This document shows, one piece after another, positions 2,031 through 30,087 of a stretch of DNA of 32,680 nt. The number at the start of each line of letters is the position of its first letter. Positions within the stretch are counted from its first letter, which is position 1. Below the pieces are notes generated by a model, which saw nothing but the letters and a program-made list of their open reading frames with translations, was not told the DNA's origin and ran no database searches. Made by a program: the position numbers and the translations under genes. Location: contig JASBUS010000086.1 of NCBI GenBank assembly GCA_030147745.1, positions 1 through 32,680 of the forward strand. Reading direction: 5' to 3'. The stretch is from Alphaproteobacteria bacterium. GTDB lineage: Bacteria; Pseudomonadota; Alphaproteobacteria; Micavibrionales; Micavibrionaceae.

Positions 2031-3272
<1,242 letters not shown>

Positions 3273-3376
3273 TCAATTTCGCTAAAGATTAGTTAGCAGC
3301 TTTCCTAGCAAACAACAAGCCTCAGCCCATATAAAATTACAAATTTTAGGAGGTAAAAATAATTTTCATAATATTA

Positions 3377-3405
3377 TTGACAGAAACATTAAAGTTATGT
3401 TAACA
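3377..3405 (+). promoter_or_regulatory. Sigma70-like promoter for the helical protein gene
   Basis: TTGACA at 3377-3382 and TTAACA at 3400-3405 are separated by exactly 17 nt, and the stretch is AT-rich. The predicted start site falls about 35 nt before the ATG at 3448. The -35 box is a perfect consensus match and the -10 is a 4/6 match. No other promoter this good is seen in the gap. Confidence 0.6.
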
Positions 3406-3447
3406 ATCAAGCCAATATTTTTATGAACTAATAAGGTGTGTAAGAAA

Positions 3448-4857
3448 ATGACCACGGAAAACATCAAATCAATTCTAGGTACACTTAAACCTGAAGACGC
3501 TAAGTCAGTTAATGCAATAAAGACGATTGTTAACGGCGAATTAGACAGCGCAGAAACAGAATTAAAACAAACAACAAACGATTCACTAAAACAAATCGAT
3601 ACAGAATATGACGAATATATTCTCGCTCTTTTGCAAGAACGCGATGCCCGCAAGCAAGGCGTTCTTACAGAGCAGCAAGAAAAAGCAGATCAAATTCGTA
3701 AAGAGCGTGATTCACAAATCGTTTTCTTCGCTGTTGCGAAACAGCTTGTTGAAAGTTTTGATCGCAGTGATAAAGGCCTCCCTGTCCCTGTCGCAGACTG
3801 CATAACATCGAAATTAGATATTCTCGCTAAATACGACTATGACATCACAGATGATGAAACAGTTGCATTACTTTTCTCTGAAGATGTTTGCGGTGCAGCT
3901 AATTATAAAATCGAAACATATGCTGACCTAGAAACACAAATTGCAAAGGTTGATGAAAATAACAAAGATTTTTCAATCAAACAAACAAGCGAGCTTGCCC
4001 TTCCTAAATTCACGGCGATTGCTGACCTTCCAAAAACAACTTTGCGTGATGTTGCTGTAAACGTGACATTATCCAACAAAGAAGGCACTGAAAGCTTTGT
4101 CGATGTATGGCAGGAAGAAAGCCATAACGAAGATTATTATACAGCTCTTACATCTGCCCTTGCGGCATTTAAAGGCAAGCTTGACGCCGCCGTTGAAAAA
4201 ACAGGCCGCAGCCCAGCTAAAGTTTACGGCGCATTCTTCAAAGCTGCGAAAAGCGAAGGCGTTGATACTGGCCTTAAAACAAAAGCAAACTTTGATGCTT
4301 ATGAAGCTGACTTACTTGCTGAAGCACAAAAATTGGATATTCAATATATCACAGACCTCTACAACGAAATTCGCACATTGCCTTACGATACAGCGAATTT
4401 TGAAGGCAAAATCCAAACAAATATCGTCACAATCCAAGACCAGATTGCTGAAGTTTCAGCACGCTATGGCCTAGATAAAGACGCTGTGATCACAAAAGCT
4501 TTTGCTAAACAAAACATCACAAACGAAGCGGAATTGAACAAACGTCTTCTAACAGACAGCTTTGAAATCAACATTCGTGGTATTGTTAACGGTATCCGCG
4601 CCCTATCAAACAAAGACGCAGCATCAACAGGCGAAACACTAGCACAAGTCCAAACAATTGACTTAAGTGAAAAACGCCTGAAAGCCGCTGGCGTTTCTAA
4701 CGATAGCATCAAAACAATCGTCACATTGAAAAGCGACTTCATCGACGCGCTTTCAACTGGCAAGCCAACAAGCGAAATTGAAAAGCAGCTTGGTACTGTT
4801 GCAATTAACGCGCAGTCAGAGATGAACAGCAAGCATTTGAAACGCACATTTGCTTAA
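3448..4857 (+). CDS. Unknown helical cytoplasmic protein, paralogue of the next gene
   Basis: I do not recognise this 469-residue protein. It has no signal peptide or membrane segment and is rich in Lys, Glu, Ala and Thr. Residues about 30-100 look like a charged coiled coil running through ARKQGVLTEQQEKADQIRK. It shares blocks with the next gene: ALLFSEDV against ALLFSKKL, then Y/K-ADLETQIAKVDENN against KADFDALRIQLAENN. Further pairs are YGLDKDAVITKAF against LALDEDQLTQMAL, and LKSDFIDAL against LQSEFLDAI. It carries about 130 extra residues in the middle. I chose the ATG at 3448 because an upstream in-frame GTG at 3436 lies inside the AAGGTG ribosome site. A consensus promoter lies upstream and a palindromic terminator downstream. 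The codon choice (many ACA and AAA) suggests good expression, but this is inference. Confidence 0.75.
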   Translation: MTTENIKSILGTLKPEDAKSVNAIKTIVNGELDSAETELKQTTNDSLKQIDTEYDEYILALLQERDARKQGVLTEQQEKADQIRKERDSQIVFFAVAKQLVESFDRSDKGLPVPVADCITSKLDILAKYDYDITDDETVALLFSEDVCGAANYKIETYADLETQIAKVDENNKDFSIKQTSELALPKFTAIADLPKTTLRDVAVNVTLSNKEGTESFVDVWQEESHNEDYYTALTSALAAFKGKLDAAVEKTGRSPAKVYGAFFKAAKSEGVDTGLKTKANFDAYEADLLAEAQKLDIQYITDLYNEIRTLPYDTANFEGKIQTNIVTIQDQIAEVSARYGLDKDAVITKAFAKQNITNEAELNKRLLTDSFEINIRGIVNGIRALSNKDAASTGETLAQVQTIDLSEKRLKAAGVSNDSIKTIVTLKSDFIDALSTGKPTSEIEKQLGTVAINAQSEMNSKHLKRTFA

Positions 4858-4880
4858 TATCGCTTTGTAAACGAATACGT

Positions 4881-4900
4881 AAAGCGGCCTAGGCCGCTTT
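4881..4900 (+). terminator. Palindromic terminator between the two paralogues
   Basis: AAAGCGGC-CTAG-GCCGCTTT is a perfect 20-nt palindrome 23 nt after the stop of the first paralogue, followed by ACTTTT. The stem is GC-rich with flanking A/T runs on both sides. It should reduce or stop readthrough into the second paralogue. Confidence 0.7.
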
Positions 4901-4923
4901 ACTTTTATCCAATAGGCCAAAAG

Positions 4924-5919
4924 ATGATTTTAGACGCATTAAAAGAATATGTAACAGCAGAACCAGACGCAGAGTTATCTGACGAAGAAAACTTCAGCGC
5001 CGTAGCCGACCGTATCCGCAATAACGTAATGGACGAGCTCGCAGAAAAAGAGCGCGAAATAGAAGCCGCCTATCAAAAAGCGCGCGATGAATTTAAAGCA
5101 CTTCGTGACGCTAAATATCAAGACCTAAGCACAATGGGCCGCGCCCGTCGCTGCGCTTCAGGCTTGGAACATCTTATCCTCACAAGCCTTAATGCAAATG
5201 AATATGTAGACCTTGAACATAAATTTGATGGCGAATTAAACCGCCTCACCCATAACTGTGAACTCGATATGGATTGCGATGAAGTCTACGCATTGTTATT
5301 CAGCAAGAAACTTATGCCATCTTTGGAGCTAGAGATTAAATCCAAAGCGGATTTTGATGCCTTACGCATTCAACTCGCTGAAAATAACACCGCCGTTTTG
5401 CGTCAGCAACATTGCAAAATCATCCAAGACGAATACCGCATTATTCAACAAGAAGCTTACGGCGATAAATTTGCCGAACGCTTAATGACAGGCTTCGTCA
5501 ATTTAACGGAACAGATTAAAGACAGCGCGGAAGTTTTAGCGCTCGATGAAGATCAACTCACGCAAATGGCGCTCAATATTTTTGATATGCGCAGCACAGC
5601 CGACATTGCCGCACGTTGGCAAAAGGCGCAGCATAAAATTGCCGCCAATGCCATTTTTCAAGATGTCGATAAATTCGACCTTGGCCGTGAGGTCGTCATT
5701 AACGATGAATTGATTTTTGCACTCTCTCAAATCAGCTTCACAGCTAAACGCTTTAAACACGCTATGCTCACCAACAAAGCCGAAGAACTGAGCGCCCTAC
5801 AAAGTGAGTTTTTGGACGCGATCCAAAATAAGCGTAATTATCGTAAACCTGCACAGGAAATGAAGCAGTTAACCCAAATACTGAAAAATCCTGATTTTAT
5901 TGTGCACTCAATATTATAG
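4924..5919 (+). CDS. Unknown helical cytoplasmic protein, shorter paralogue
   Basis: This 331-residue protein has no recognised family. It has no signal peptide or membrane segment and is predicted by eye to be almost all helical. A charged coiled-coil-like stretch runs through ADRIRNNVMDELAEKEREIE at about residues 29-48. The blocks shared with the preceding gene keep the same order: ALLFSKKL, a KADFDALRIQLAENN block, LALDEDQLTQMAL and LQSEFLDAIQNK. This suggests tandem duplication followed by loss or gain of a middle segment. A weak AGG site precedes the ATG. A terminator palindrome separates it from its paralogue, so it may be transcribed at a lower level. It ends exactly where the convergent kinase gene ends, with no spacer. 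Confidence 0.7.
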   Translation: MILDALKEYVTAEPDAELSDEENFSAVADRIRNNVMDELAEKEREIEAAYQKARDEFKALRDAKYQDLSTMGRARRCASGLEHLILTSLNANEYVDLEHKFDGELNRLTHNCELDMDCDEVYALLFSKKLMPSLELEIKSKADFDALRIQLAENNTAVLRQQHCKIIQDEYRIIQQEAYGDKFAERLMTGFVNLTEQIKDSAEVLALDEDQLTQMALNIFDMRSTADIAARWQKAQHKIAANAIFQDVDKFDLGREVVINDELIFALSQISFTAKRFKHAMLTNKAEELSALQSEFLDAIQNKRNYRKPAQEMKQLTQILKNPDFIVHSIL

Positions 5920-6984
5920 TTAAGCGGCGACTAAAGCGGCATCATTAACTAAGTCAATTTCAACGACATGGTCAAAATCCATGCCTTGCGCCTTTAACCA
6001 CGCATAAACTGGTGCAAGCACTGGCGCGCGCATATCTGCCTTAAACTGCTGTAGCAGCCCCGGTAAATATTGCAAATATTGCGGCTTACCTTTGAAGGCA
6101 AGCTCAATAAACTGCCCTAAACAGCGGCTATGAAACTGCGCCGCCAAAATCGCGTAATGCGCATGGAATAAAGCGACCTCGTCATCCGACATTTCAGACG
6201 TAAAGGCCTGCTTCGCCGCTGTCTTTATATGATCAGGCACAATACGGCGCGCATCATCAAGCAAATTGACCAAGTCATAAACATAAGGCGCATGCATCGC
6301 CCCCTGATAATCAAGCACGCCAACGCAATCCACGTCAGATGCACCATCCAAATACATTAAATTCATCAAATGAAAATCGACATGTGAAAAACATGCGCGC
6401 GGCGCGGCGACGGAGGCCTCGACCTCATCCCATACATGCAGATATTCCGCCGTAAATTCAGCGCTGACTGGACGTTTAAGCAATATCGGCAAATACCATT
6501 CAGCCAATTTACTACGCCCCGCATGAACATGGCTGGCGCGATAATCTATCAAACCATCGATATCATCAATCTTCGCCATATTGCGGGCAATCTCTGCTGC
6601 ATATTGATAAGCAGCTTCCATTGAGATTTTACCCGCCGCAATCGCCAAATCCATCCGCATATCGCCGAAGTCTTCGATCAAGACAAAACCATGATCAGGC
6701 GCCGCGGCGAATACCTTAGGCACACGTATATTATGACGTAGCAGAGCTTTGGATAATCGGTCTGTATTACGCACCAAATGGCCAATATGAGCGCTTGGGT
6801 CATTATCAGGCGGGCCAACACATAATAATTTGCCTTCTGCGCCCTGCCCGCTCATGCGGTAATAACGGCGCGGCGCCATATCTTCACCAACCGATGAAAA
6901 TTGATCCACCACGATGCCTTCAGCGCACAAAAAAGCCTCAAGCGCACGCATGTCATTCGTAATCGCCGTCATAGAAGTCATCAT
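5920..6984 (-). CDS. amgK: APH/AmgK-family sugar kinase (probable MurNAc/GlcNAc anomeric kinase)
   Basis: This is a kinase of about 354 residues with the aminoglycoside phosphotransferase fold. The catalytic loop reads HVDFHLMN (Brenner motif HxDxHxxN), and the metal-binding Asp lies in LDYQGA about 20 residues later. An EDFGDM segment sits at the N-lobe/C-lobe hinge. The domain order and acidic profile match AmgK, which phosphorylates the anomeric carbon of MurNAc or GlcNAc in a peptidoglycan recycling route that continues with the uridylyltransferase MurU. No murU is visible here, and a different small-molecule kinase is possible. The start is uncertain: GTG 6987 and ATG at 6984, 6981 and 6972 are all in frame without a good ribosome site. 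The stop of the upstream gene lies only 8-11 nt away, so translational coupling is likely. Confidence 0.72.
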   Translation of the reverse strand: MMTSMTAITNDMRALEAFLCAEGIVVDQFSSVGEDMAPRRYYRMSGQGAEGKLLCVGPPDNDPSAHIGHLVRNTDRLSKALLRHNIRVPKVFAAAPDHGFVLIEDFGDMRMDLAIAAGKISMEAAYQYAAEIARNMAKIDDIDGLIDYRASHVHAGRSKLAEWYLPILLKRPVSAEFTAEYLHVWDEVEASVAAPRACFSHVDFHLMNLMYLDGASDVDCVGVLDYQGAMHAPYVYDLVNLLDDARRIVPDHIKTAAKQAFTSEMSDDEVALFHAHYAILAAQFHSRCLGQFIELAFKGKPQYLQYLPGLLQQFKADMRAPVLAPVYAWLKAQGMDFDHVVEIDLVNDAALVAA

Positions 6985-22256: not shown

Positions 22257-23435
22257 TTATATCCCAAATTGAGGGCGGCAAGTCTTGATAATAAAGCCGT
22301 CTTGCGCTGAATTTGCCTCAACCTTACAAGCAGATGGATCAAAGCCTGCTTCACGCATAGCCGCTTCTTGCGCCTCTTTGATCGCTTGTTCTTGCGCTAG
22401 ATTAATGAACTTATAACCTTCATCGCCCAATTTCTCGACACGGTAATCATTAATATCCGTACCTTCAGGCATATTCGCAACAAACAGCTCTCTTGCTTGG
22501 TCTAAGTGAACTTTATCAAGCACGCTGTCACCATGTAACCAGACACGGTCTAATTCAGCGACGGTTTTAAGCGCGGCCGCTTGGTCTTGTGCAATCGCGT
22601 CATTAACGCCAGTATATTGGAAATATGCATAATCAATACGCGCCTTAACATCACCCGTTTCAACGGCATCTTTCAAAAGCTGCGCGCCCCATGCATCGGC
22701 ATCAACAAGATCCGTAAGCTCACCTAATTGGTCAAAACCATAGAAACCATTAATCAAACCAAGGCCAACATCACGTACCGCCCATGTTTGCCCCTTAAGC
22801 GCCGCATCAATCATTTCACGCGCTTGGTCGCTTAAATCAGGGTTTTGTGCCAATAACGCCAATTTCTCATATGGGCTTTCTGGAATAACCAAAGCTGGTT
22901 CTTCTGGAATTATCTCTGTCTCTTCTTCTGGAAGTTCTTCAACTGGTGGCTCAACAGGTACTTCTGTGCCGCTTTCAGGGATAATTTCAGGAATATCATC
23001 GGTTGGCACTTCAATAATTTCAGGTGCGCCGACAGTAAAATAGTTGTCCGCAATCCAATCTGCCCCACCAAAACCAATAAAGGCTGATGTTGTTGTTAAC
23101 GCCAAGCGTAATGAATACCCCTTCCAACGTGATTTAAAGAAATCGAGCGCATTATCATGCTCTGTCTGTTGCTTATAATCTTTATTAAAGCTGTAAGCCG
23201 TTAAACCGACACCTGCAGCTACCGTAAAGACTGGCCCTAAAATCGCCGCCCCTGCTGCCATCGCGGCAATCTTTGCACCAACACCAGCCGCAATACCCAA
23301 GGCCGCAGGCGTGAAAGCTTTTTTCAGCGTATTCTTACTTGGTAAACGCTGCGTAACGCCGCGCCAAACTGATTTAAGTGAAAATTTGCTTTTGCTCTCG
23401 CTCGCTTGAACTTCTTGTTTTTCAATATCGCTCAT
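22257..23435 (-). CDS. Hypothetical membrane-anchored protein with Pro/Glu-rich linker
   Basis: I do not recognise this 392-residue protein. The N-terminal 40 residues are polar and basic. A Gly/Ala-rich hydrophobic region follows (about 43-82, probably two helices) and then another hydrophobic stretch near 108-128. Residues about 138-188 are a Pro/Glu-rich linker with repeated IIPE and PEE units. The C-terminal domain is helical. One part, LLKDAVETGDVKARIDYAYF, looks like a weak Sel1/TPR-type repeat. Two cysteines lie near the C-terminus (DPSACKVE and TCRPQ). The gene diverges from the Asn/Gln-rich secreted protein gene and shares its 236-nt upstream region, so a functional link is possible but unproven. 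The C-terminal half is probably on the periplasmic side. Confidence 0.65.
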   Translation of the reverse strand: MSDIEKQEVQASESKSKFSLKSVWRGVTQRLPSKNTLKKAFTPAALGIAAGVGAKIAAMAAGAAILGPVFTVAAGVGLTAYSFNKDYKQQTEHDNALDFFKSRWKGYSLRLALTTTSAFIGFGGADWIADNYFTVGAPEIIEVPTDDIPEIIPESGTEVPVEPPVEELPEEETEIIPEEPALVIPESPYEKLALLAQNPDLSDQAREMIDAALKGQTWAVRDVGLGLINGFYGFDQLGELTDLVDADAWGAQLLKDAVETGDVKARIDYAYFQYTGVNDAIAQDQAAALKTVAELDRVWLHGDSVLDKVHLDQARELFVANMPEGTDINDYRVEKLGDEGYKFINLAQEQAIKEAQEAAMREAGFDPSACKVEANSAQDGFIIKTCRPQFGI

Positions 23436-23546
23436 GGTCTTGTCCTAACATTGCGGTAAATTCGGGCATAGTTTTCACATAATCCAAAACAAAAATCAAC
23501 AAAATTCACAAAAACATAAGGAAAACATAATGTTAAATAAAGTTTG

Positions 23547-23576
23547 TTGACACACTATACATAATCATGGCATAAC
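23547..23576 (+). promoter_or_regulatory. Promoter-like site for the Asn/Gln-rich protein gene
   Basis: A perfect -35 TTGACA (23547-23552) is followed at 17-18 nt by CATAAC or GCATAA, a weak -10. The leader to the ATG at 23672 would be about 90 nt and contains CACCGTT/AACAGTG, a small hairpin. Confidence 0.4.
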
Positions 23577-23671
23577 CCATCACCGTTGAAACAGTGTCAT
23601 AGAAGGCGAAAAGCTTTTAAGGGCCCAAAACCCCGAGATGTATAAGCCGAGATTTAATAGAGGAATTTAAA

Positions 23672-25237
23672 ATGACGACCACTAAACTATCGAATTTGAA
23701 AAACGCAGCCATCCTAGCAGCAGCTTTGGGCACATCAGGTGCAGCATTTGCAGGTGGCACACAACAAACACAGCCAATCATTAATGTTGGTGGCCCTGAA
23801 AACTTTATAACTGTTGAACCTGCCGTTGTTGAAAACAACCCAGTCGTCACAGCAACTGGCACAGCCACAGCACAAGGCGGCGACCAAAATAACCAAGTGA
23901 GCATTGCGCCAATTTCATCTGTCTCATCAGGCGGCAACGTAAACGGTACAATCGCTGATTATTCACAAACATTGAACAACGCTGGTGGCGCTGAAGTATT
24001 TGTTGGCGACACAAGCGCAACAAACGGTGATGTAAACGGCAATATCAGTGGCACAATCACTGACAACTCACAAACACTAAACAATGCTGGCGGCGCTGAA
24101 TTGAATGACAATTCAATCACGAACAACAGCAGCATCGGTGGCGGCGCGGAGCTTCTTTCAAACATTGAAAATGGCGGCGTAACAGGTAACATTGCTGATA
24201 ATTCAACAACCAATAACAGCAACATTGCTGGTGGCGCTGAATTGTTGTCAAACATCGAAAACGGTGGCGTAACAGGCACAATCGAAGATAATTCAACAAC
24301 CAATATTGATGCATCTTCACAAAACGATCTTGCGCAGAACAACAACCAAGAGCAAAGCAATAGCCAAGCGCAAGAAAACAACCAGTCGCAAGACAATAAC
24401 CAAACCAACAGCCAATCTACATCAGTAGACAATAGTGGCAGCGGTAACAGCCAAAACCAGAATACACAAAACACATCTGTTGGCGGTAATAACAGCAGCT
24501 ACACAAATAACAGTGTATACAAAGCGGGTGCGGCATCTAACATTCCACAAGCTGCGGCAATTTTGGCAACGAAGCAGTGTTCAGCGTCATTCTCATTCGG
24601 CGCTGGTGGCGGTAACGTATACGCAGGCTACGGCGGCCTATCATTTGGTTTTGTTGGCAGCGAAGCGGTTGCCCTTACAGGTAAAATGAAAGTTGACGGT
24701 AAAACTGTCGAAGTAGCATACACAATCCCTGAACTTGCAGATCTTGCGCCGACTGAACGCGCACCAGTATTTGCAAACCTTCGTAAAGGTGAACAGGAAA
24801 AAGCGACATGTTTGATGGGCAATTACATTGCACAGGAACGTTCACTGCAAAAAGCTTACGACCAAGCGACTAAAGTTGCAGAAATTAATGCAAATGCCCA
24901 CACAACAAGCACAAGCATTAACGCACAAGCCAACATGTATATCGCTGAAGTCCAAGCAAACAGCGCCGTTCAAGTTGAACAAACACGTGCAATCGGCCAA
25001 GCGTTCAACCAAACAGTGACTCATAGCTGTAACTTAAAGCCAACAGTCATCCAAGACGGTGCAAACAAGCAAGCTGTTGTGAAAGAAACCCTCGCTATTC
25101 GCGGTCAAGGCCATGAAAACTGCGAACAAGTTATGTGGGGCACATTTAACGCCCTTACAAACGGCGCGCCAGTAAGCACACAAAAGCCAGACTTTACAAA
25201 ATACACTCAGAAAGTCGCGCCAGCGCCAAAACAATAA
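23672..25237 (+). CDS. Secreted Asn/Gln-rich repeat protein, possible surface fibre or amyloid
   Basis: This 521-residue protein has a Sec signal peptide (1-27, ending GAAFA) with a likely cut after Ala27. Residues about 85-210 hold four degenerate repeats built on V(N/T)G(T/N)I-x-D(N/Y)S-x-T-N and GGAE. The last two are 90 nt apart and almost identical. Residues about 215-285 are extremely Asn/Gln/Ser-rich. Then comes a Gly-rich segment, CSASFSFGAGGGNVYAGYGG, and a helical Ala/Gln/Asn region around 375-450. Four cysteines lie in the C-terminal half. The composition is like that of functional amyloids and adhesins, but it lacks curli (CsgA) and FapC repeat motifs, so the family is unknown. 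GAGGAA precedes the ATG. A terminator follows, then a lipoprotein gene on the same strand. Confidence 0.72.
   Translation: MTTTKLSNLKNAAILAAALGTSGAAFAGGTQQTQPIINVGGPENFITVEPAVVENNPVVTATGTATAQGGDQNNQVSIAPISSVSSGGNVNGTIADYSQTLNNAGGAEVFVGDTSATNGDVNGNISGTITDNSQTLNNAGGAELNDNSITNNSSIGGGAELLSNIENGGVTGNIADNSTTNNSNIAGGAELLSNIENGGVTGTIEDNSTTNIDASSQNDLAQNNNQEQSNSQAQENNQSQDNNQTNSQSTSVDNSGSGNSQNQNTQNTSVGGNNSSYTNNSVYKAGAASNIPQAAAILATKQCSASFSFGAGGGNVYAGYGGLSFGFVGSEAVALTGKMKVDGKTVEVAYTIPELADLAPTERAPVFANLRKGEQEKATCLMGNYIAQERSLQKAYDQATKVAEINANAHTTSTSINAQANMYIAEVQANSAVQVEQTRAIGQAFNQTVTHSCNLKPTVIQDGANKQAVVKETLAIRGQGHENCEQVMWGTFNALTNGAPVSTQKPDFTKYTQKVAPAPKQ
24140..24305 (+). repeat. 90-nt tandem repeat inside the secreted protein gene
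   Basis: Two consecutive units encode GGAELLSNIENGGVTG followed by NIADNSTTN or TIEDNSTTN with a 90-nt (30-codon) period. Nucleotide differences are mostly at third positions, which fits a protein-level repeat under selection and not a very recent duplication. Two weaker copies lie upstream from about 23939. Confidence 0.75.
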
Positions 25238-25295
25238 TTAGTTTAAATTGAGAATATTATGTTTGCTCTGATATAGACCAAACATCAGAATGATG

Positions 25296-25333
25296 AGGCC
25301 GCTTCCCTTCCCCTATAGCGGCCTTATCTTTAT
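25296..25333 (+). terminator. Terminator after the secreted repeat protein gene
   Basis: AGGCCGCT (25296-25303) and AGCGGCCT (25317-25324) form a perfect 8-bp stem with a 13-nt loop, followed by a T-rich tract. A second weaker hairpin (TGTTTG...CAAACA, about 25260-25284) lies just before it. Confidence 0.75.
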
Positions 25334-25425
25334 TAAAATCAATGCGTTAACAACAATACTTGATTTTAATATGGAAAATATATAAATTACCTCACGGTAA
25401 TATAAAAAACTAATGGTGTGTAAAA

Positions 25426-26007
25426 ATGAATCTTAAAAAAATCTTCGTTACAGTGGCACTTCCTGTTCTGCTCTCTGCCTGTGCATCACAGCGCATAATC
25501 CATAGCTTATCTGATGACTGCCTGCATGAAGTAAAAGACGAAGACGGCAAAGTCATTAGCGTTGATTTTAGCCAAGCTTGCGGCGAGCATAAAAAAGAAC
25601 TCGCACGCCTGACCATTACCGAAGAAACCGAAAAAGCGTTAAAAACCATCGAAGCCACACAGCAAGGTGAAATTAACATCATCAATCAGGAAAAAACCAA
25701 AATCTTCTGGCAAGCCCTTGCCCAGCGCGCCGCCGTTGAATTGGGCAACCCACGCCAAGAAGACACCGCAACACGTTTGTTAATTGCTGCACGCACCCAT
25801 GAAGATCCTGAAATTCGCAAGATGCTGAGCGATGCACAGCAAGATTTAGGCATCACAAACGAAGCCCTAAACAGTAAAAACGCAACATGGGATAAAATCC
25901 GCGAAGCACAAGCCACACCAGGCATTCAAATTGTCGACCTCGGCAACGGCGAATTCTATATGGATAAATACAAACACAGCTACGGCCCACTAAGCCGCCC
26001 GAATTAA
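25426..26007 (+). CDS. Small outer membrane or periplasmic lipoprotein, unknown function
   Basis: This 193-residue protein has a lipoprotein signal, MNLKKIFVTVALPVLLSAC, with the lipid-modified Cys at 19. The mature part is helical and charged, with a coiled-coil-like stretch at about 65-95 (TEETEKALKTIEATQQGE) and two cysteines (DDCLHE, QACGEH) near its N-terminus. No family is recognised. Its start is set by GGTGTG about 6 nt before the ATG. A small hairpin, TTACC-TCAC-GGTAA, lies at 25387-25400. It follows the secreted Asn/Gln-rich protein gene on the same strand after a terminator, so it may have its own promoter. The pairing of a secreted repeat protein with a lipoprotein suggests export or anchoring, which is inference. 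It abuts the convergent beta-CASP gene with no spacer. Confidence 0.72.
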   Translation: MNLKKIFVTVALPVLLSACASQRIIHSLSDDCLHEVKDEDGKVISVDFSQACGEHKKELARLTITEETEKALKTIEATQQGEINIINQEKTKIFWQALAQRAAVELGNPRQEDTATRLLIAARTHEDPEIRKMLSDAQQDLGITNEALNSKNATWDKIREAQATPGIQIVDLGNGEFYMDKYKHSYGPLSRPN

Positions 26008-27366
26008 TTACAGTTCTTCTTTTTGTAAGTATTCAGGAATAACTACATTCCAGCCATAACGCTCTTCTATCGCCGCTTTTAAGCCTAGCGCAGCTTCTGG
26101 CTCACCATGGGTGAGGAAGACTTTGCGTGGTGGCTTGGTGAAGCTTGAAAGCCATTTCAAAATCTCGTTACGGTCAGCATGAGCGGATAAGCCGCTTAAG
26201 TTATCAACCTCTGCCCGCACAGGGAATGTAAAGCCATGGATTTTAACTTCGGTATCACCTGATGTTAAATTCGCACCACGTGTGCCTGCGGCCTGAAAAC
26301 CTGCGAACAACATTGTGTTTTTCGGGTCGCCACAGTAATTCTTCATATGGTGCAGCACGCGCCCGCCTTCCGCCATACCGCTCGCGGAAATAATAATACG
26401 TGGCATGTTATTCATCTCATTAAGGGATTTAGACTGCTCTGGCGTACGCATATATTTCGCGATTTTGAAAATCTCGTCACATTGCTTTTCTGACAAGCGG
26501 TGGTCAACATGATGCTTTTTCCAAAGCTGTGTTGCATCAATCGCCATCGGGCTATCAAGGAATATCGGCACATCAGGAATGGCATTGGCTTCTTTTAACT
26601 GGTGTAAATAATAAAGCAAAGTCTGCGCACGTCCGACGGCAAAAGCTGGGATCAACACCACCCCGCCACGCGCTACTGTGCGGTTAATAATCTCCGCCAA
26701 TTTAATTGATGGATCTTCAGGGTCATGATCACGGTCGCCATAGGTCGATTCTAACACCAAATAATCAGCCTCTTGATGCCCAACAGGTTTCACCATCATC
26801 GGATCATTCATACGGCCAATATCGCCTGAAAAGACAATCGATGTTGAACCATCGTCAATACGCACACTGCCTGCACCCAAAATATGGCCTGCACGGCTGA
26901 AGGAGAAATTCAGCATATCATTCAGCGCGTATTTCTGACCAAAGGCAACGGGCTTAAACGCTTCCATCGCTTCCCATGCCTCTTCCATCGTATAAAGCGG
27001 CTCTGCAGGATGGTGGCGGCTATAGCCATATTTATTGGCACGGCGCGCGTCTTCTTCTTGGATATTACCGCTATCAGGCAGCAAAATATCACAAAGCTCC
27101 GTCGTCGCGAGCGAGGCATAAACCTTGCCTTTAAAACCTTGCTTAATAAATTTAGGGATATACCCGCTATGGTCGATATGCGCATGGGTCAGAATCATAT
27201 CATCAACATCAGCAGGATTTATCGGCAACCCACTCCAGTTACGCTCACGTAATTCTTTGAGGCCTTGAAACAGACCACAATCAATCATTAGCTTATAGCC
27301 TTCATCTTCAAGAAGATATTTAGACCCTGTAACCGTGCCTGTTGCACCCATAAACGTTAAATACAT
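26008..27366 (-). CDS. Beta-CASP metallo-beta-lactamase-fold nuclease (RNase-like)
   Basis: This 452-residue enzyme has the metallo-beta-lactamase fold with an inserted beta-CASP domain, as in bacterial RNA-processing nucleases of the TTHA0252/Ysh1 (CPSF-73) type. The zinc motif HAHIDH lies at 61-66. Further ligands are in SRAGHILGAGS and VFSGDIGRMND. The beta-CASP motifs follow: IPAFAVGRAQ, DSPMA, SASGMAEGGRVLHH, LSAHADR and LTHGEPEA. Together these are diagnostic of the family. The expected activity is zinc-dependent endo- or exonucleolytic RNA cleavage in the cytoplasm. It is not the RNase J subfamily, which is longer and has an extra C-terminal domain. It diverges from the LOG gene with a 68-nt gap. 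Confidence 0.9.
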   Translation of the reverse strand: MYLTFMGATGTVTGSKYLLEDEGYKLMIDCGLFQGLKELRERNWSGLPINPADVDDMILTHAHIDHSGYIPKFIKQGFKGKVYASLATTELCDILLPDSGNIQEEDARRANKYGYSRHHPAEPLYTMEEAWEAMEAFKPVAFGQKYALNDMLNFSFSRAGHILGAGSVRIDDGSTSIVFSGDIGRMNDPMMVKPVGHQEADYLVLESTYGDRDHDPEDPSIKLAEIINRTVARGGVVLIPAFAVGRAQTLLYYLHQLKEANAIPDVPIFLDSPMAIDATQLWKKHHVDHRLSEKQCDEIFKIAKYMRTPEQSKSLNEMNNMPRIIISASGMAEGGRVLHHMKNYCGDPKNTMLFAGFQAAGTRGANLTSGDTEVKIHGFTFPVRAEVDNLSGLSAHADRNEILKWLSSFTKPPRKVFLTHGEPEAALGLKAAIEERYGWNVVIPEYLQKEEL

Positions 27367-28125: not shown

Positions 28126-30087
28126 CTAATTTAAACGGAATTTATCAACACGCCCATCCTCACCATAGGTGAAGAATAAATACTGCCCCTCGGCATCCCA
28201 CTGGAATGGTTTATTCGTATAAGGATTATAATATGCTGTTGCGTCTTCGATATAAGCCGCAGCTTCATCCAAGGGTACATTTTCCGCCCGCATTGTAATG
28301 CCGAGCGAAGCGAGTTTGAAACGAATTTCGTTAACTTTCATGCTTTGCGCTAAAGAGCCCCCTTTAAGCATACCTGGATACAAAATAGCCAAAACAATAT
28401 TCGGATAAAATATACCTGGTTTCAACGCCCCATAAAGTAGCCATGACTCCTCATCTGTCACCCGTTGAATTGGGCAGTCCTTAAAATCATGTACGTCTAG
28501 AGATTGCGTAGGTAAACGATCAAATTCATCATAACAGACATTCATATCATTCCGCACGGCATTGACATTGCCCAAATACCAAATCAAAGATGGCTCGATT
28601 AACCCCATATCATCAGACGGATTAAATCTGAAAATTTCTTGATTAACATATAGTACCGAGATCAACGCCTCCTCATATTGCTGCGCGAGCCGCGGCGCAA
28701 TATGCAATAATTTTTCTAAAGCATGGAAGTGCGACTTAACCGCAATTAAAATCACTGCCTTATTCACCATCGTATCGCGACTTGGCAGGATTTTCTTATA
28801 AAGCGTCATAAAACGTAGCCATTCATCCATCGCCGCATCATGTTGCCCTTGTTCAGCCAAATAAATGATCTGCGCTGCTTTCAATTGAGAAAGTGGATTT
28901 ATCTCTGACATCTGGCTCCCCAAAAACATAGGGACAGAATTATACGCATAATCCAAGTCCGCCAATGCATTAAAGCGATCCCACATCACTGTATATTCAG
29001 CCACATAACTTTGCCAATCGTCCCAACTGGCGCAGCTAAAATTAGCTTGCCAATCTAAGTTATAGAGGCAATCAAGTTTCTTCATATTTTTGCTATTAAT
29101 TTTTAACGCGTTTTGCGCATCAAGCTTAACTGCATCATCGTCTAACTTAGGCACGTCATATAAATATTTAGGGTCAATTTTTGCGTAATGCTTCATCTCC
29201 TCAAATATTTTGAACTTCTTATAAGCTGATTTTCGCCCATAGGCATAAAAATCCTCGACTTCCGCAGGCGCAGTTATGCCCTCAACCGCAAAAAATAAAT
29301 TATCATCCCACACCAATTCATAACCACCATAAAGCCGTGCTTCATAACGCGGGTCAACGTCTGGTGCGCGGTAATTTTGTATAATCAAAAATGCAAAAAT
29401 CAGCGTAAAGACAATAATGTTAAAAAGACCACCCCCGTGCTCCACACAAAGCACTCCACGACCAAATCGACTTCTCAACCTCTTTTCAAATTTCCCACGA
29501 ATTCTATCTCGATATTTCTGTGGCAGAATTAGGCGTACACCTAATAAAATTTCGTATAAATTGCGCCCTTTAACATGACGTAATAATATAAGACACCATA
29601 TAATTTGCGCACCTATGACGCTGACAATAAAGCTCTCAAAGGCATAAACCGTCTGCTCAAAACCAATGGTAAACACATAAATCGCCCCCAATATGATGGG
29701 CATATTCTCAACCAATAAATAGATAAGCAGTTGCCACAAACGCCAGTCCTGCCCATCCACGCGCGCTAATTGTCCCAACTTATCTGGATTTGGCTGCTTA
29801 AGAATTATTGGAATAAAGCATAAATATAAAAACAGCCACAAAAGTAAAAACAAATGTATCCGTGCCTGTTCCGCATGCACACTGACGTATGAATCCAACC
29901 ACTGCCGAACCCATTCGTCAGGCGTTTCCAACATTTCGCCCAACACGGGCGGAAGGTTATAAAATTCAAAATAAAAACCCAGTAAAAATTTAGATGCAAA
30001 AAAGCAAACGACAATCAAGCCAAGCAAAACGCCCATATATGCTTCGCGCTCCTTTTGAGCCAAATACTTATCAAAGTTTGCTTCCAC
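28126..30087 (-). CDS. Large membrane protein of unknown function
   Basis: This 653-residue protein has about five membrane helices in its first 240 residues (near 18-40, 77-97, 118-141, 150-170 and 219-237) and then a 410-residue soluble domain. The segment GRNLYEILLGVRLI (174-187) resembles the RDD-family signature (G-x5-LLG-x-R), so the membrane part may be a divergent RDD module. The soluble part is helical with TPR-like character around AAQIIYLAEQGQHDAAMDEW. It ends in YNPYTNKPFQWDAEGQYLFF, a C-terminal block like that of type II pseudopilins (NPxTGxPFxW). I know of no characterised homologue. The soluble domain is probably periplasmic by charge placement. The upstream region (30088-30224) separates it from a divergent gene. 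Confidence 0.7.
   Translation of the reverse strand: MEANFDKYLAQKEREAYMGVLLGLIVVCFFASKFLLGFYFEFYNLPPVLGEMLETPDEWVRQWLDSYVSVHAEQARIHLFLLLWLFLYLCFIPIILKQPNPDKLGQLARVDGQDWRLWQLLIYLLVENMPIILGAIYVFTIGFEQTVYAFESFIVSVIGAQIIWCLILLRHVKGRNLYEILLGVRLILPQKYRDRIRGKFEKRLRSRFGRGVLCVEHGGGLFNIIVFTLIFAFLIIQNYRAPDVDPRYEARLYGGYELVWDDNLFFAVEGITAPAEVEDFYAYGRKSAYKKFKIFEEMKHYAKIDPKYLYDVPKLDDDAVKLDAQNALKINSKNMKKLDCLYNLDWQANFSCASWDDWQSYVAEYTVMWDRFNALADLDYAYNSVPMFLGSQMSEINPLSQLKAAQIIYLAEQGQHDAAMDEWLRFMTLYKKILPSRDTMVNKAVILIAVKSHFHALEKLLHIAPRLAQQYEEALISVLYVNQEIFRFNPSDDMGLIEPSLIWYLGNVNAVRNDMNVCYDEFDRLPTQSLDVHDFKDCPIQRVTDEESWLLYGALKPGIFYPNIVLAILYPGMLKGGSLAQSMKVNEIRFKLASLGITMRAENVPLDEAAAYIEDATAYYNPYTNKPFQWDAEGQYLFFTYGEDGRVDKFRLN

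What the first reader, a model, noticed from the sequence alone, without database searches (positions are those of the whole stretch)
23672..25237. Secreted Asn/Gln-rich repeat protein resembling a functional amyloid of unknown family
A signal peptide, four degenerate GGAE/DNS-type repeats, a 70-residue Asn/Gln/Ser run and a Gly/aromatic segment all appear in one protein. Curli and Fap systems share this style of composition, but their repeat motifs are absent. It may define a new surface fibre or matrix protein.
Basis: partly seen in the sequence, partly recalled or inferred. Interest (0 to 1): 0.65.

Follow-up and report, generated by a model that had tools for sequence, protein, structure and literature searches.

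The report
Variable exported surface-protein cassette in Micavibrionales
The gene encodes an exported, repeat-rich protein that is one part of a three-gene cell-envelope cassette seen so far only in the bacterial order that includes the predator Micavibrio; the cassette can differ almost completely between related species, which suggests a variable surface layer or fibre, while the proposed amyloid nature is neither shown nor shared by most relatives.

Summary
In detail: window 23672-25237 is a real gene for an exported 521-residue protein with a signal peptide, GGAE/DNS repeats (period 30 residues), an Asn/Gln-rich run and a Gly/aromatic segment. The repeats are the fast-changing part; what is conserved is a Cys-containing C-terminal core (94% identical to the nearest relative, dN/dS about 0.05). 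The gene belongs to a three-gene cassette: a divergent gene for a membrane protein with Sel1-like (once LysM) repeats, the exported protein, and a lipoprotein. The lipoprotein follows in 18 of 18 family loci; the divergent gene is present in 17 of 18. A class-wide sample of 289 genomes gave matches only inside the window's own family. Only 3 of 30 cassette proteins are strongly Asn/Gln-rich; 13 of 30 carry GGxGG repeats instead, so amyloid character is not a family trait. Curli/Hfa membership fails: no CsgG in the genome. In one genus the cassette proteins are 20-33% identical at one chromosomal slot with flanks at 71-95%, and one species carries a different type, so whole cassettes seem exchanged. 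Best reading: an abundant, exchangeable exported surface or matrix protein held by a partner lipoprotein. M. aeruginosavorus ARL-13 has a cassette of this layout.

The parts
22257..23435 (-). UP: divergent gene, 392 aa; hydrophobic membrane segment(s) at about residues 48-78, Glu/Pro-rich linker, Sel1-like repeat region
   Evidence: hydropathy; profile A4 hits SEL1L 5b26 E 9e-4; Sel1 E 3e-10 in the homologue of L104 and LysM E 2e-10 in L038; a gene aligned as UP lies divergent in 17 of 18 family loci
23436..23671 (.). shared intergenic region between the divergent genes; ribosome-binding site at its right end
   Evidence: the promoter scan found no site here
23672..25237 (+). NQ: exported low-complexity protein, 521 aa: signal peptide 1-27, polar repeats 28-213, Asn/Gln-rich run 214-285, conserved core 286-521 with Cys303, Cys380, Cys453, Cys484
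24105..24305 (+). 90-bp tandem repeat (30-residue unit GGAELLSNIENGGVTG.I.DNSTTN)
25292..25328 (+). 12-bp-stem, 13-base-loop hairpin after NQ, possibly a terminator or attenuator, before the lipoprotein gene
   Evidence: fold z -5.05 for 25268-25345, 0 of 200 shuffles as good; not listed by the terminator scan, whose loop limit is 8; a hairpin below all 60 shuffles in 19 of 21 cassettes with gaps of 40 nt or more
25426..26007 (+). LP: lipoprotein, 193 aa, lipobox LLSAC with Ala at +2; predicted long helix 50-106; HEAT-like helical stretch
   Evidence: (Cys aligned in 18 of 18)

Best explanation
NQ is the abundant product of a three-gene envelope cassette. It is exported by Sec (inferred from the signal peptide). 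Its C-terminal core, probably disulphide-bonded, docks on the co-encoded lipoprotein at the outer membrane (inferred from adjacency and co-segregating subtypes). The low-complexity N-terminal part forms an extended, polar layer or fibre outside the outer membrane (inferred). UP sits in the inner membrane with its Sel1/LysM part in the periplasm and anchors or regulates the assembly (inferred). The exposed part changes freely in length and composition, and in some genera the whole cassette appears to have been exchanged, as expected of a surface structure under selection by phage, prey or competitors. Shown: the gene set, its conservation, the variable and conserved halves, the hairpin, the codon bias and the slot-level variability. 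Inferred: location, docking, layer formation and selective cause.
For: LP directly downstream in 18 of 18 family loci, with the lipobox Cys aligned in 18 of 18 and A, S, V or I, never Asp, at +2; UP divergent in 17 of 18. Of 19 further loci drawn around UP or LP matches, 12 carry a similar exported low-complexity gene. NQ codon adaptation 0.676, third of 27 window ORFs and within the 0.60-0.79 of 20 genes taken as ribosomal; LP 0.545. Hairpin right after the NQ stop in 19 of 21 cassettes with room for one. Core 94% against N-terminal part 75% identical to the G001 gene, the latter with 53 gap columns. Same slot in four species of genus g11: flanking proteins 71-95%, NQ 21-33%, LP 20-26%, UP 25-28% identical, one shuffled NQ pair about 24%; the G117 NQ and LP match cassettes of other genera and not their g11 siblings among their best three hits. 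NQ and LP subtypes co-segregate, 11 long and 7 short.
Against: No outer-membrane export route is encoded beside it, so NQ may stay in the periplasm. NQ has no usable model and the LP model is weak (mean pLDDT 62.7). NQ-LP contact rests on linkage; linked genes inherited together would co-segregate anyway. In genus g1 (the window's own) and in g23 the NQ core is not more variable than its flanks. The hairpin could end the NQ unit and leave LP on its own promoter, and 6 of 18 family loci lack one by the strict measure: four with gaps under 40 nt, L039, and L045 just short of it. A strict lipobox pattern was met at the aligned Cys in 15 of 18, not in L039, L042 and L044.
Confidence: 0.42

Rival explanations
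1. Periplasmic scaffold: NQ never leaves the periplasm. Its disordered part is a spacer linking the lipoprotein at the outer membrane to UP at the inner membrane or peptidoglycan.
For: No OM secretion gene in the cassette; UP has Sel1-like and in L038 LysM repeats, typical of periplasmic parts; NQ matches no surface-anchoring family.
Against: The extreme variability at the g11 slot and the apparent swaps of whole cassettes are more typical of exposed structures; a spacer would not need ribosomal-level codon use.
Confidence: 0.27
2. Functional amyloid: the Asn/Gln/Gly repeats polymerise into amyloid fibres at the cell surface.
For: 34 N/Q in 80 residues and 30-residue repeats in the window protein; in G086 a UP-like gene sits in a run with a CsgG-type lipoprotein (PF03783 E 4.7e-6) and Asn-rich exported proteins, that is a curli/Hfa-like set.
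Against: Only 3 of 30 cassette proteins are so N/Q-rich; repeats about 2% aromatic; no curlin repeat; no CsgG in G000-G002; no confident beta structure, though the model is too poor to exclude it.
Confidence: 0.17
3. Prey- or host-directed adhesin: the variable part binds a partner cell, and cassette exchange changes partner range.
For: The order includes the epibiotic predator M. aeruginosavorus, and ARL-13 has a cassette of this layout (G079 contig of 2,481,983 bp, the size given in PMC3189940; L141).
Against: No binding domain found; no mention of this locus in the passages and sections of PMC3189940 that were seen; the predatory habit of the window organism is unknown.
Confidence: 0.14

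Closest known systems
Curli (CsgA/CsgB with CsgG/E/F)
   Same: Exported polar repeat protein, outer-membrane-type lipoprotein beside it
   Different: No curlin repeat, no CsgG in the genome, the lipoprotein is not CsgG, a conserved Cys core is present, GGx repeats in many relatives
Holdfast anchor HfaA/HfaB/HfaD of Caulobacter (recalled; papers seen only as a search listing)
   Same: Alphaproteobacterial; small exported proteins plus an outer-membrane lipoprotein
   Different: HfaB is CsgG-like (recalled), absent here. Among the loci looked at, a curli/Hfa-like set lies beside a UP-like gene in G086 only
Fap fibres of Pseudomonas (recalled)
   Same: Asn/Gln-rich exported repeats (recalled)
   Different: No Fap family appears among the Pfam or NCBIfam matches of the three proteins; the rest of the genome was not searched for Fap
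Polyglycine-II GGX repeat proteins such as T-even phage adhesins (recalled)
   Same: GGxGG runs in 13 of 30 cassette proteins
   Different: No match of the window's NQ core or LP in phage records, and none of the NQ core in viral contigs; the window protein itself has no GGxGG
Sel1-like repeat proteins (PF08238)
   Same: UP has a Sel1-like repeat region behind a hydrophobic segment
   Different: The window's own UP is below detection by Pfam; it is recognised through relatives only

Membership tests
Curli system | CsgG (PF03783) export channel in the genome | tested here: not met
   12 of 142 genomes of the order match, none of G000-G002 (G000 98.6% complete, G002 about 85%); controls ring in 4 of 14, E. 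coli and Caulobacter among them
Curli system | Curlin repeats in the subunit | tested here: not met
   no Pfam family at E up to 1 for the NQ protein
Fap system | FapA-F homologues / FapC repeat motif | tested here: inconclusive
   no Fap family among the matches of NQ, LP or UP; I did not check which Fap models the libraries hold, nor search the genome for Fap
Hfa holdfast anchor | HfaB (CsgG-like) beside the subunit | tested here: not met
   the CsgG model rings in Caulobacter
Functional amyloid (works like) | Cross-beta fibres, dye binding | not testable with these tools
   Needs protein; AlphaFold model unusable
Prion-like domain (30 or more N/Q in 80 residues, threshold recalled) | Composition | tested here: met
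   34 in the window protein, but only 3 of 30 cassette proteins
Bacterial lipoprotein (LP) | Signal with lipobox and invariant Cys | tested here: met
   Window LLSA-C; Cys aligned in 18 of 18; strict pattern at that Cys in 15 of 18
Sel1-like repeat protein (UP) | Sel1 repeats | tested here: inconclusive
   No Pfam hit for the window UP; family profile hits SEL1L at E 9e-4 and a homologue has Sel1 at 3e-10
Phage-encoded protein | Match in phage or viral collections | tested here: not met
   PHROGs gave nothing for NQ, and only weak matches for LP (E 0.17) and UP (E 0.017)

The most novel reading that the evidence does not exclude
Micavibrionales carry a serotype-like surface-fibre locus: exchangeable UP-NQ-LP cassettes in which the exported protein's material (Asn/Gln run, GGX run or other low-complexity design) is swapped while the docking core and lipoprotein are exchanged as a matched pair, giving epibiotic predators a variable coat or attachment fibre that does not use any known fibre-secretion machine.
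Probability: 0.2. Interest if true: 0.75.

Novelty: new variant of a known kind. Interest (0 to 1): 0.52.

Why it matters
If right, it adds an undescribed, in some genera hypervariable envelope system to an order that includes bacteria which attach to and feed on other bacteria. Little is known of the molecular mechanism of such predation (abstract of PMC3189940). M. aeruginosavorus ARL-13, which is grown on prey, has a cassette of this layout, so the question can be tested directly. It also cautions against naming an amyloid from composition alone, since the composition is the least conserved feature of the family.

Tried and rejected
Amyloid as the family trait: rejected on composition across 30 cassette proteins. 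Curli/Hfa membership: rejected, no CsgG. Phage or viral origin: no match of NQ core or LP or NQ core. A common domain in NQ and LP: suggested by a 26-residue BLAST match in L112, rejected by profile comparison (hhalign probability 0.2 and 0.5%). Structure of NQ: AlphaFold mean pLDDT 32.7, useless. The LP model (62.7) gave no Foldseek match at E up to 0.001. Profile matches of LP to artificial alphaRep/HEAT proteins (best E 6e-11 for the whole chain, no single stretch passing on its own) suggest a HEAT-like helical stretch only. The consensus scan of 23300-26100 found fewer promoter-like (2 against 4.2) and terminator-like sites (3 against 5.0) than shuffles do, and none upstream of NQ. Whether the cassette is mobile within genus g1 was not settled: the flanking gene used as marker was not found in G002. 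Literature: searches for Micavibrionales (29 papers, 15 listed), Micavibrio with Sel1 (1) and Micavibrio with amyloid (4) showed no paper on this locus by title or start of abstract; some searches were seen as listings too. Only PMC3189940 was opened (abstract, passages, sections 5 and 14); its supplementary tables could not be read.

In the co-segregation test the script gave L040 (short-type NQ) an LP spacer of 45 because its Cys was misaligned; counted by hand from the real Cys it is 26. With the script's values the ranges overlap (Mann-Whitney p 5e-4). The subtype split was first seen by eye in the same alignments, so the p-value is not a blind test.

Full report
What is there. Window 23672-25237 (+) encodes 521 residues. 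Residues 1-27 look like a Sec signal peptide ending in AFA (by eye). Residues 28-213 are polar repeats with four GGAE motifs; the self-match at lag 30 (39 identities) exceeds the maximum of 2000 shuffles (28), and the DNA shows a 90-bp tandem repeat at 24105-24305. Residues 214-285 are 44% Asn/Gln; the best 80-residue window has 34, while none of the other 26 window ORFs counted exceeds 19. From about 286 a different part begins, with a Gly/aromatic stretch, a predicted strand pair and helices (low confidence), and the protein's four Cys.

The conserved half is the C-terminal core. Against the G001 gene (same genus) the core is 94% identical over 248 residues with dN 0.034 and dS 0.642, while the N-terminal part is 75% identical over 240 aligned residues with 53 gap columns. 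In G027, another genus, the core is still 50% identical but the GGAE repeats are gone. For the NQ protein there is no Pfam or PHROGs match at E up to 1, and one NCBIfam match at E 0.07, far under its cut-off. LP and UP fare alike (best: LP NCBIfam E 0.05, UP PHROGs tape-measure model E 0.017, both taken as chance).

Distribution (own genome counted). With the single protein, 7 of 58 relatives match; with a core profile, 18 of 142 genomes of the order, in 11 of 54 genera; the lipoprotein profile matches 23 of 142. In a sample of 289 genomes drawn from the class, the core and the lipoprotein profiles each match 2, the window's own genome and G009 of its family; UP was not searched there. Seventeen of the 18 core-matched genomes are in the window's family and one (G057) in another family of the order. 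Named relatives from genome contigs are an Alphaproteobacteria MAG (ARS11) and two Micavibrio MAGs (UBA2705, UBA2638), whose contig lengths equal those of G001, G002 and G027, so the window is from a Micavibrio-like organism. That scan reaches close relatives only. The order name Micavibrionales is taken from these names and from PMC9933672 (listing); NCBI taxonomy still files Micavibrio under Bdellovibrionota, while PMC3189940 places it in the alpha-proteobacteria. The phage collection (NQ core and LP) and the viral contigs (NQ core) gave nothing.

The cassette. In the 18 core-matched loci a lipoprotein gene follows on the same strand in 18 of 18 (Cys aligned in all; strict lipobox pattern at that Cys in 15). 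A divergent gene (UP) lies upstream in 17 of 18; in G012 the neighbour is a panD-like gene (the UP of G035 runs off its contig and was left out of alignment A4). UP has a hydrophobic segment over the threshold used in 14 of 17 members tested (not L039, L041, L042) and a Sel1-like region (SEL1L, E 9e-4; Sel1 E 3e-10 in the homologue of L104; LysM E 2e-10 in L038). The UP profile matches 54 of 142 genomes; not all were inspected. Of 20 further stretches fetched, chosen from UP or LP matches, one (L106) holds only the lipoprotein of a genome whose other two genes are on another contig (L105). Of the other 19, 12 have a similar exported low-complexity gene beside UP (judged by eye), 6 do not (L113-L117, L122), and one (L120, G086) has instead a CsgG-type lipoprotein with Asn-rich exported proteins. 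Of those 12, ten have an adjacent lipoprotein-like gene; L105 has it elsewhere and L121 has a partner without a lipobox. Several of the 12 NQ proteins (for instance L109, L110, L121, L123) show little or no similarity to the NQ profile, so for them membership rests on gene order.

Micavibrio aeruginosavorus. Genome G079 is one contig of 2,481,983 bp, the size given for ARL-13 in PMC3189940 (section 5). It has UP, an exported Asn/Gly-rich protein and a lipoprotein in the same layout (L141: 7370-8986 +, 6154-7077 -, 5288-6133 -). UP similarity is clear (A4 match E 4e-25), but NQ and LP similarity is weak (for the near-identical G024 counterparts E 8e-4 and 0.015-0.19 in a test set of 48 sequences whose best shuffled controls, over the five profiles, reach E 0.05). 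The paper says nothing about this locus in the passages and sections seen.

Expression. Measured against 20 genes of the same genome that I took for ribosomal proteins by sequence and order around L2, NQ has a codon adaptation index of 0.676 (third of 27 window ORFs; reference genes 0.60-0.79), LP 0.545 and UP 0.590. Just after the NQ stop is a hairpin with z -5.05; the terminator scan does not list it, its loop being too long for that scan. Of 29 cassettes measured, 21 have a gap of at least 40 nt between NQ and LP, and 19 of these hold a hairpin more stable than all 60 shuffles; L039 and L045 do not, and 8 have shorter gaps. L104 and L141 are near-identical and count twice. This fits an abundant protein made in excess of its lipoprotein, though it could also separate two transcription units.

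Low-complexity design. Over 30 cassette proteins only 3 reach 30 N/Q in 80 residues (window, L031, L112), and 13 have at least two GGxGG motifs. Aromatic residues in the low-complexity part are rare (about 2% in the window). Amyloid is therefore possible for the window protein but is not what the family conserves. AlphaFold with four sequences gave no structure for NQ (mean pLDDT 32.7) and a modest model for LP with a helix at 50-106 (mean 62.7).

NQ and LP as a pair. In 11 of 18 loci the NQ core ends in a long helix-like stretch with an HxC motif, or a close variant in L039, and LP carries a spacer of 37-66 residues; in 7 NQ lacks it and the LP spacer is 25-26 by hand count (the script gave 45 for L040 because of a misaligned Cys). 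Both subtypes occur within genera g8 and g29. This is consistent with the two proteins working together, but linked genes inherited as a block would show it too. They do not share a detectable domain.

Variability. Four species of genus g11 have the cassette in the same slot, between genes read by eye as HIT/panD and hisE/hisF. Flanking proteins are 71-95% identical, NQ 21-33%, LP 20-26%, UP 25-28% (three species); one shuffled NQ pair gives about 24%. The G012 and G118 cassettes resemble each other in NQ and LP; that of G117 has its best hits in g29 (NQ) and in g7 and g50 (LP); that of G119 has no hit in NQ and LP. In g30 a flanking transporter-like protein is 91% identical both between G031 and G121 (UP 61%, LP 43%, NQ 35%) and between G120 and G121 (UP 86%, LP 54%, NQ 66%). 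Against this, ARL-13 and G024 differ little (NQ core 99%, N-terminal part 85%, LP 98%, UP 91%, one flank 99%), and in the window's own genus a flanking protein is only 75% identical where the NQ core is 94%. Hypervariability is thus a feature of some genera, and replacement rather than fast drift is inferred, not shown.

Mechanism and verdict. The best reading is an abundant exported protein, tied through its Cys core to an outer-membrane lipoprotein, whose low-complexity part forms a variable surface layer or fibre. Export and the lipoprotein rest on sequence; docking, surface exposure and layer formation are inferred. The main rival is a periplasmic scaffold. Curli and Hfa membership are not met and no Fap match appeared; 12 of 142 genomes of the order have CsgG, and among the 18 core-matched genomes only G105 does, on another contig. 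The family is real and undescribed as far as Pfam, NCBIfam, PHROGs and the paper searches go, and of moderate interest; the amyloid label should be held back until tested.

Noticed in passing
L120 (G086): 2999-6689: A CsgG-type lipoprotein (PF03783 E 4.7e-6) lies with two Asn-rich exported proteins and a UP-like Sel1 gene on one strand: a possible curli/Hfa-like set in a Micavibrio relative.
   Followed up: partly
L132-L134, L136-L138 (G129, G131, G141): Two partial CsgG matches per genome about 1 kb apart, one of each pair in an open frame of 1200-1420 residues; unusual CsgG architectures in order family f3.
   Followed up: no
L105 and L106 (G048): The cassette is split: UP and NQ on one contig, the lipoprotein alone on another, although both contigs extend beyond the genes.
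   Followed up: partly
L113-L117: UP-like Sel1 regions in other families of the order occur without the exported protein and lipoprotein, with other neighbours.
   Followed up: no
window 28126-30087 (-): 653-residue ORF without Pfam or NCBIfam match, present in G001 (75% identical) but not found in G002, G027, G008 or G035.
   Followed up: partly
window 2031-3251 (-) and 3436-4857 (+): The two window ORFs with codon adaptation slightly above that of NQ (0.682, 0.681); not identified.
   Followed up: no
L037: NQ gene: Part of the NQ core reads as N (masked or unknown) in this stretch, so its row is incomplete in alignments A2 and A11.
   Followed up: no
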